Of a stretch of DNA of 64,000 nucleotides, positions 1-181 are shown one piece after another. Where the stretch lies: assembly GCF_900187505.1 (NCBI RefSeq), contig NZ_FYDL01000016.1, forward strand, positions 1 to 64,000. The letters are read 5' to 3'. The stretch comes from Pseudomonas sp. Irchel s3h17. Its GTDB lineage: Bacteria > Pseudomonadota > Gammaproteobacteria > Pseudomonadales > Pseudomonadaceae. Within the stretch, counting starts at the first letter, position 1; each line of letters begins with the position of its first letter. The position numbers and the translations under genes are program-made. Below the pieces are notes generated by a model. The model saw only the letters and a program-made list of their open reading frames with translations. It made no database searches and had not been told where the DNA came from.

Positions 1-166
1 CCCATATGAATCAGGCGCTGCCGAAGAAACTCTGGGATCGACTCGGGCTGGTCTCAATACTGGACACGATAACCCGGCTTAACCGCTTAACCTGAACCGC
101 CGTATACGGAACCGTACGTACGGTGGTGTGAGAGGACGGCGGATGTAAATCCGCCTCCTACTCGAT
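1..166 (+). mobile_element. 3' end of a group II intron (domains V and VI), truncated by the window edge
   Basis: Positions 96-127 fold as a domain V hairpin: a 9-bp lower stem (96-104 with 119-127) containing a CGC triad at 98-100, a two-base CG bulge at 117-118, and an upper stem 105-108/113-116. Positions 130-163 fold as domain VI: GAG/CTC, AGGA/TCCT and GGCGGAT/ATCCGCC helices with a GTAA loop. A single unpaired A at 160, six bases from the proposed 3' splice site at about 166, is well placed as the branch point. These are hallmark group II intron features. The rest of the intron lies left of the window. The exon resumes about 15 bases before ligA, where Pseudomonas normally has the zipA-ligA junction. 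Confidence 0.8.
3..95 (+). CDS. C-terminal end of the group II intron-encoded protein (partial)
   Basis: An open frame enters from the left edge, encodes 30 codons and stops at 93-95, touching the first base of domain V. The residues include ALPKKLWDRLGLVSILD, which resembles the C-terminal tail of intron-encoded reverse transcriptase/maturases. Their ORF sits in domain IV and often ends right at domain V. Catalytic domains are outside the window, so whether the protein is intact cannot be judged. The call rests mainly on position relative to the RNA domains. Confidence 0.55.
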   Translation, partial: HMNQALPKKLWDRLGLVSILDTITRLNRLT

Positions 167-181
167 TATGAGAGAACACCC

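What the first reader, a model, noticed from the sequence alone, without database searches (positions are those of the whole stretch)
1..181. Group II intron ends 15 bases before the ligA start codon
Domains V and VI with a bulged branch A are visible, and the exon resumes within the usual zipA-ligA junction. An essential gene pair (cell division zipA, DNA ligase) may therefore be separated by a self-splicing retroelement. Either splicing or read-through must keep ligA expressed.
Basis: partly seen in the sequence, partly recalled or inferred. Interest (0 to 1): 0.6.

Follow-up and report, generated by a model that had tools for sequence, protein, structure and literature searches.

The report
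Group IIC intron before ligA
A self-splicing "jumping" RNA element has landed, apparently twice independently, at exactly the same base just in front of the DNA ligase gene in Pseudomonas, right after a terminator-like hairpin, which is where this class of element is known to land.

Summary
Window 1-166 is the 3' end of a group II intron: the last 30 codons and stop of its reverse transcriptase (3-95), domain V (97-126), and domain VI (127-166) with bulged A160. The exon resumes at 167, 15 nt before the ligA ATG. The window's left edge is a contig end. The other side is the right end of contig C42: zipA, hairpin with T tract, then the intron's 5' end GTGCGCC. The joined flanks recreate, without gain or loss, a ligA leader that is uninterrupted at this point in 134 of 148 genus genomes; in 51 of them the match also takes in the end of zipA. 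The element is an ordinary group IIC intron: a sibling RT is closest to GsI-IIC RT, and all 6 intron 5' ends seen here follow terminator-like hairpins. New: P. fluorescens C8 has it at the identical base, and the ligA tree needs two changes. The ligA start region lies wholly in the 3' exon, so translation should survive without splicing; transcription is untested. Side finding: at the four other visible 3' ends an IS1111-type element sits exactly before domain VI.

The parts
1..166 (+). 3' part of a group IIC intron (the contig starts here; full-length relatives are about 1.92 kb)
   Evidence: window = contig C29 from base 1; the 20 listed plasmid copies are 90.9-93.9% identical over 99-100% of it; length of relatives
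3..95 (+). last 30 codons and stop of the intron-encoded reverse transcriptase, frame open to the contig edge
   Evidence: tblastn, listed matches up to 93.3% identity, three of the five listed annotated ltrA
97..126 (+). domain V: 8-bp helix, 2-nt bulge at 117-118, 4-bp distal helix, loop 109-112; triad C98-G99-C100
   Evidence: RF00029, fold, covariation; the triad assignment follows the canonical domain V as recalled
127..166 (+). domain VI: helices 130-135/157-163 and 138-144/149-155, GUAA loop
   Evidence: pair 143-150 occurs as A-U, C-G, G-C, G-U and U-A
160..160 (+). bulged adenosine, predicted branch point, 7th base counting back from the 3' splice site
   Evidence: identity as branch point inferred
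167..181 (+). 3' exon: conserved ligA leader TATGAGAGAACACCC with purine-rich Shine-Dalgarno-like stretch 170-176
   Evidence: Identical in 28 of 29 intron-free relatives read out, one substitution in the other; the Shine-Dalgarno role is inferred
182..2539 (+). ligA, NAD-dependent DNA ligase, 785 aa, intact

Best explanation
A mobile group IIC (bacterial class C) intron inserted into the zipA-ligA intergenic region of a Pseudomonas, directly downstream of a conserved terminator-like hairpin (GAGCAGCCTCGGCTGCTC-TTTTGCTT) and 15 nt upstream of the ligA ATG, in the sense orientation. Shown: the anatomy of both intron ends, the hairpin target, the exact empty site, and a second occurrence at the same base on a separate branch of the ligA tree. 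Inferred: it arrived by retromobility (reverse splicing after the hairpin, copied by its own or a sibling's RT). RNA that reads past the hairpin enters the intron; splicing would restore the native leader exactly, and unspliced RNA would still carry the whole native start region of ligA. ligA expression is therefore most likely kept by transcription through or from within the intron, whether or not splicing is efficient.
For: RF00029 hit and covariation. RT tail in frame. 5' end GTGCGCC straight after zipA's hairpin. The joined flanks match without a break at the insertion point in 134 of 148 other genus genomes, 51 of these from the end of zipA on; 28 of 29 read-out loci have the same 23 bases from T tract to ATG, with no target duplication or deletion. 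No intact empty copy seen in this genome: its two matches are the two halves. Sibling RT on contig C7 with RVT_1 and GIIM domains, best PDB match GsI-IIC RT, 3.7e-134. All 6 intron 5' ends seen in this genome follow hairpin plus T tract. P. fluorescens C8: both junctions at the identical base; starred branches of the ligA tree force two changes.
Against: The intron body at this site is not assembled in the readable contigs, so intactness of its domains I-IV and RT is unknown. zipA-ligA linkage is inferred across two contigs. EBS/IBS pairings were not worked out. One full-length relative (L102) follows a hairpin without T tract. No expression or splicing data; no strict sigma-70-type promoter was found in the intron stretches scanned, so the source of ligA transcripts is open.
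Confidence: 0.92

Rival explanations
1. [quoted passage not shown] splicing is irrelevant for ligA. (A variant of the best explanation, not exclusive of it.)
For: Published precedent, seen as passages of a review (PMC8876359; the original PMC3001079 is not held). The element is in sense orientation with ligA.
Against: Strict sigma-70 scans found no promoter in window 1-300, in the 5' part of sibling copy C7, or in a full-length relative; a weak or other-sigma promoter is not excluded.
Confidence: 0.3
2. Recombination between intron copies has separated zipA and ligA: the junctions are real but today the two genes lie far apart.
For: At least six 5' ends and five 3' ends of the same intron exist in this genome, at or near contig ends, so the draft cannot pair them; no read data.
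Against: The joined flanks rebuild the empty site exactly, and in 51 relatives one match runs from the end of zipA into ligA; parsimony favours the simple insertion.
Confidence: 0.07
3. Assembly chimera: the intron end was joined to ligA by mistake.
For: Repeats cause such errors, and the intron lies at the contig edge.
Against: The 3' splice boundary is exact, zipA carries the matching 5' end at exactly the complementary point, no intact empty copy was found, and another strain's assembly (C8) shows the same two junctions. Contig C29 starts exactly 127 bases before the point where intact and IS-interrupted copies would part, as a 127-mer graph would break (inference).
Confidence: 0.02
4. What is left at ligA is a shortened, dead copy.
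For: Only the two ends are visible; 6 of 20 copies read in relatives and a plasmid were shorter than full length (3) or had no clear 5' end (3).
Against: 125 nt of the 5' end are present next to zipA, and domains V and VI, the boundary and the RT tail are unbroken at ligA.
Confidence: 0.12

Closest known systems
Group IIC (bacterial class C) introns inserted after intrinsic terminators
   Same: Domain V/VI, GTGCG 5' end, RT plus X domain without further domain in a full-length relative, target = terminator-like hairpin plus T tract; passages of PMC4424553, PMC3522654 and PMC7923331 describe this target rule
   Different: Nothing structural was found to differ; the site is notable for lying between a conserved leader hairpin and the start codon of an essential gene
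GsI-IIC RT and a second solved group II intron RT (7uim; group IIC of Eubacterium rectale as recalled)
   Same: Best PDB sequence matches of the sibling RT on contig C7, 3.7e-134 and 7.1e-102
   Different: Different hosts; the RT of the ligA copy itself is seen only as its last 30 codons
Group IIC-attC introns (S.ma.I2 type)
   Same: Same class; similar intron ends sit on plasmids of Leclercia, Citrobacter, Enterobacter, Pseudomonas
   Different: The ligA copy follows a short terminator-like hairpin; no attC test was run, and whether the relatives belong to the attC subclass was not tested

Membership tests
Group II intron | Domain V and VI fold with bulged branch A | tested here: met
   RF00029 50.1 bits; fold and covariation
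Group II intron | Domains I-IV | tested here: inconclusive
   Present in sibling copy C7 (RF02001 141.3 bits, RF01998 57.2 bits); at ligA only the first 125 nt and last 166 nt are assembled
Group IIC / bacterial class C | Intron-encoded RT of class C with X domain | tested here: met
   C7 sibling: TIGR04416 417.4 bits against cut-off 300, RVT_1, GIIM, best PDB match GsI-IIC RT; at ligA only the RT C-terminus. No RT phylogeny was made
Group IIC / bacterial class C | No endonuclease domain | tested here: met
   Full-length relative L102: only RVT_1 and GIIM in 473 aa; the ligA copy itself is not resolved
Group IIC / bacterial class C | Insertion directly after a terminator or inverted-repeat hairpin | tested here: met
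   zipA-ligA hairpin; 6 of 6 5' ends seen in this genome; 13 of 14 full-length copies read elsewhere follow hairpin plus T tract, the 14th (L102) a hairpin without T tract
Group IIC / bacterial class C | Short EBS1-IBS1 and EBS3-IBS3 pairings, no EBS2 | not tested
   Domain I of the ligA copy is not assembled; not worked out on siblings
Group IIC / bacterial class C | Splicing and retromobility | not testable with these tools
   Needs RNA or mobility assays; dispersal is inferred from copies at many sites and two arrivals at ligA
Group IIC-attC subclass | Insertion in an integron attC site | not tested
   No attC search was run; the 5' exon here is a 7-bp hairpin plus TTTTGCTT, so the copy is not filed there
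IS110 family, IS1111 group (side finding) | DEDD and Transposase_20 transposase; inverted repeats near the ends | tested here: met
   Relatives L101, L108: both Pfam domains; ends TATGGACGCCCCC / GGGGGCGTCCATGTA in L100, L104. In this genome only the right end is seen. That such repeats mark the IS1111 group is recalled
IS110 family, IS1111 group (side finding) | Bridge RNA that programs the target | not tested
   A conserved stretch lies between transposase and right end; loops were not matched to the target

The most novel reading that the evidence does not exclude
Two layers of parasites around an essential gene. An IS1111-group element specialises in splitting group II introns between domains V and VI, and has hit four of the five intron 3' ends visible here. 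The ligA copy alone escapes because an IS there would cut ligA off, so DNA ligase supply depends on an intact, read-through or splicing intron and protects it.
Probability: 0.12. Interest if true: 0.6.

Novelty: new member of a known kind. Interest (0 to 1): 0.36.

Why it matters
It is a clean natural test of how an essential gene tolerates a group IIC intron 15 nt before its start codon, found at the same base on two branches of the ligA tree. The conserved hairpin before ligA is itself worth a look: it resembles a terminator, yet only 23 nt separate its stem from the ATG in the empty site, so ligA must be transcribed past it or from a very close start. The side finding, IS1111-type elements placed before domain VI of at least two intron types, suggests an IS lineage that lives off introns.

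Tried and rejected
Chance fold: rejected by Rfam score, shuffles and covariation. Assembly artefact: held unlikely, see rivals. The four other 3' ends at first looked like introns with a replaced domain V; they proved to be the right end of an IS110/IS1111-type element in front of domain VI. No complete IS was found in this genome: no Transposase_20 hit. RF00029 rang in this genome only at ligA, which fits. The collapsed intron body was not found in the readable contigs. Promoter scans gave nothing. Pairing of the other 5' and 3' ends with each other was not attempted; EBS/IBS pairing was not worked out. Phage collection: two partial hits, one of them an intron 3' end at 87.8% identity in Pseudomonas phage DVM-2008. 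Paper searches for an IS110/IS1111 element inside group II introns (0, 7, 0, 5 and 1 papers) showed none on this subject by title and start of abstract. Only one of these papers was opened, as passages (PMC1525189): it ties IS110-family elements to REP targets and lists group II introns (2 of 9) among REP-associated elements, not as IS targets. The search with ligA, zipA and group II intron asked for two of three terms and gave 1,899 papers, 20 listed, none on this by title; 'liga' also matches words such as ligand, so it says little. The library holds open-licence papers only, so all this is weak evidence of absence.

Full report
Observation. Window 95-166 matches Rfam RF00029 (group II catalytic intron, domains V and VI) with 50.1 bits, E 3.4e-8, also above the gathering score when the whole window is scanned. 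The strand folds with z = -5.7. In 16 distinct sequences of this genome and relatives 97.5% of cells pair, three pairs change on both sides (5 of 500 shuffles reach three), and none of 500 shuffles reaches the covariation score. The rows come from loci found by similarity to the element; one row (L149), degenerate at its end, holds 8 of the 10 unpaired cells. Domain VI ends ...CCTACTCGAT at base 166 with A160 bulged. The ligA ATG is at 182 and the ORF runs intact to 2539 (785 aa).

The window's left edge is the start of contig C29. Window 3-95 reads in frame as the C-terminus of an intron RT, HMNQALPKKLWDRLGLVSILDTITRLNRLT-stop; tblastn against plasmids gives matches up to 93.3%. So RT tail, domain V and domain VI follow each other directly.

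The other side. The one zipA found in this genome lies at the right end of contig C42. After its stop come a GC-rich inverted repeat, then GAGCAGCCTCGGCTGCTC-TTTTGCTT, which a terminator scan picks up, then GTGCGCCAGGCATGG..., the intron's 5' end, to the contig end. The last 127 bases of C42 are identical in two further contig ends, which probably is why the assembly stops there.

Empty site. I joined C42 up to the base before GTGCGCC with the window from 167 and searched 149 genomes of the genus, own genome included. All 149 have a match. Of the 148 others, 134 have a best match that starts at query base 106 or earlier and runs across the insertion point (121/122) without a break; 51 of these start at base 1, in the end of zipA; in the other 83 the spacer upstream of the hairpin has diverged and zipA is not in that match. 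In 14 the match starts at base 126 or later; the 450-570 bases fetched at those places hold nothing closer than 20 of 39 bases to domain VI. In the 29 relatives read out, the 23 bases from T tract to ATG are the same in 28 and differ by one base in one. The joined flanks show no duplication or loss, as expected of reverse splicing. The own genome gives only the two halves. A query spanning intron end and ligA (window 60-260) gave, in the rows printed for 398 genus genomes (own included), one match across both parts only in the own genome; the list is cut and two candidates per genome were scored.

Second occurrence. An exact pattern for intron end plus ligA leader, scanned over one genome per species of GTDB r220, found one contig: NZ_LACC01000056.1, Pseudomonas fluorescens C8; a diverged occurrence would be missed, and the window's own genome may be left out of that scan. 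Its ligA region is 85.0% identical to the window, the contig begins inside the intron, and the zipA end of the same genome stops 19 bases into GTGCGCCAGGCATGGCGCG, after the same TTTTGCTT. In a tree of 31 ligA genes (the window, C8 and the 29 relatives read out) the two occupied genes each pair with an empty-site neighbour (G108 for the window; G021 for C8, 96.2% identical) on starred branches, which force two changes. Two separate arrivals at one base is the plain reading; one old arrival with losses would be the alternative. That the window is a Pseudomonas follows from this tree.

What it is. The sibling RT on contig C7 carries RVT_1 and GIIM, scores 417.4 against 300 for the NCBI group II RT/maturase model, and is closest to GsI-IIC RT in the PDB. 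Its upstream part holds Rfam domain I-IV models. A full-length relative has no further Pfam domain. All six 5' ends of the intron seen in this genome (C42, C33, C39, C35, C7, C31) follow a hairpin with a T tract. Of 20 copies read elsewhere, 14 are about 1.92 kb; 13 of these follow hairpin plus T tract and one (L102) a hairpin without it; of the other six, three are shorter (L208, L211, L219) and three have no clear 5' end (L201, L212, L214). This is the group IIC target rule as reviewed (passages of PMC4424553, PMC3522654, PMC7923331; the original paper is not held).

How it probably works. The hairpin is the docking site. Transcripts that pass it enter the intron. Splicing would give back the native leader. 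Without splicing, ligA still has its 15-nt leader with GAGAGAA (170-176), so translation should go on. Transcription may come from upstream read-through or from inside the intron; an outward promoter is on record for S.ma.I2 (passage in PMC8876359), but my scans found none. I put read-through, spliced or not, first and the intron promoter second. Insertion close to a start codon is not unique: in the same genome the copy at contig C32 also ends 15 nt before a 387-codon ORF.

Side finding. The other four visible intron 3' ends (C8, C32, C33, C40) have domain VI but no domain V next to it; instead 87 bases ending GGGGGCGTCCATGTA. That stretch resembles the right end of an IS110/IS1111-type element: on plasmids of Massilia and Polaromonas an IS110-family transposase ends 207 and 219 bases upstream. 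In Cupriavidus necator pBB2 and Pseudomonas sp. 7-41 both ends are seen, domain V...ATTGG|TATGGACGCCCCC on the left and GGGGGCGTCCATGTA|TGTGCGGGGG...domain VI on the right. Of the right ends that I read out, 12 of 22 are followed by a domain VI: 4 of 4 here, 3 of 9 on plasmids (L099, L100, L104), 5 of 9 in genus loci (L140, L141, L145, L147, L148). One further locus (L146) was dropped because no right end could be placed, and not every match was read. L140 and L141 share the same downstream exon and are probably one insertion by descent; the four here may not be independent either. The query carried domain VI, which favours copies with the same intron; L100, L104, L145, L147 and L148 carry a different intron's domain VI. 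Ten of 22 sit elsewhere (three of them, L143, L144, L195, before a GC-rich TGAGC-type repeat), so the element is not confined to introns. Contig C29 starts exactly 127 bases before the base at which intact (GGTG) and IS-bearing (GGTA) copies would part, which fits a 127-mer assembly graph; this is inference, as the IS left end is not seen in this genome.

Verdict. It is a known kind of element at a known kind of target, with the modest surprise of repeated insertion before an essential gene.

Noticed in passing
L002-L005 (contigs C33, C8, C40, C32 of the own genome), L099, L100, L104, L140, L141, L145, L147, L148: IS110/IS1111-type right ends lie exactly before domain VI of group II introns of at least two types: 12 of 22 right ends read out.
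   Followed up: partly
L010:1974-1999 and the leaders of L110-L139: A terminator-like hairpin with T tract directly before ligA is nearly invariant in the 29 relatives read out while the rest of the zipA-ligA spacer varies; function unknown.
   Followed up: partly
contig C32 end (L005): Another copy of the intron ends 15 nt before the ATG of a 387-codon ORF; the ORF was not identified.
   Followed up: no
G000:C37:18506-19126 (L008): A further reverse transcriptase gene with a 452-aa open frame; its kind was not examined.
   Followed up: no
window 6096-6192: Bacterial small SRP RNA (RF00169, 73.5 bits); ordinary.
   Followed up: no
window 40106-40151: A 46-base stretch, 93.5% identical, also lies just downstream of ligA in P. 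fluorescens C8, perhaps an interspersed repeat.
   Followed up: no
L099 3949-5581: P. mandelii JR-1 plasmid holds domain I-IV fragments of two other group II introns in opposite orientation near the IS-plus-domain VI remnant.
   Followed up: no
EU982300.1 5775-5881: Pseudomonas phage DVM-2008 carries an intron 3' end 87.8% identical to this one.
   Followed up: no
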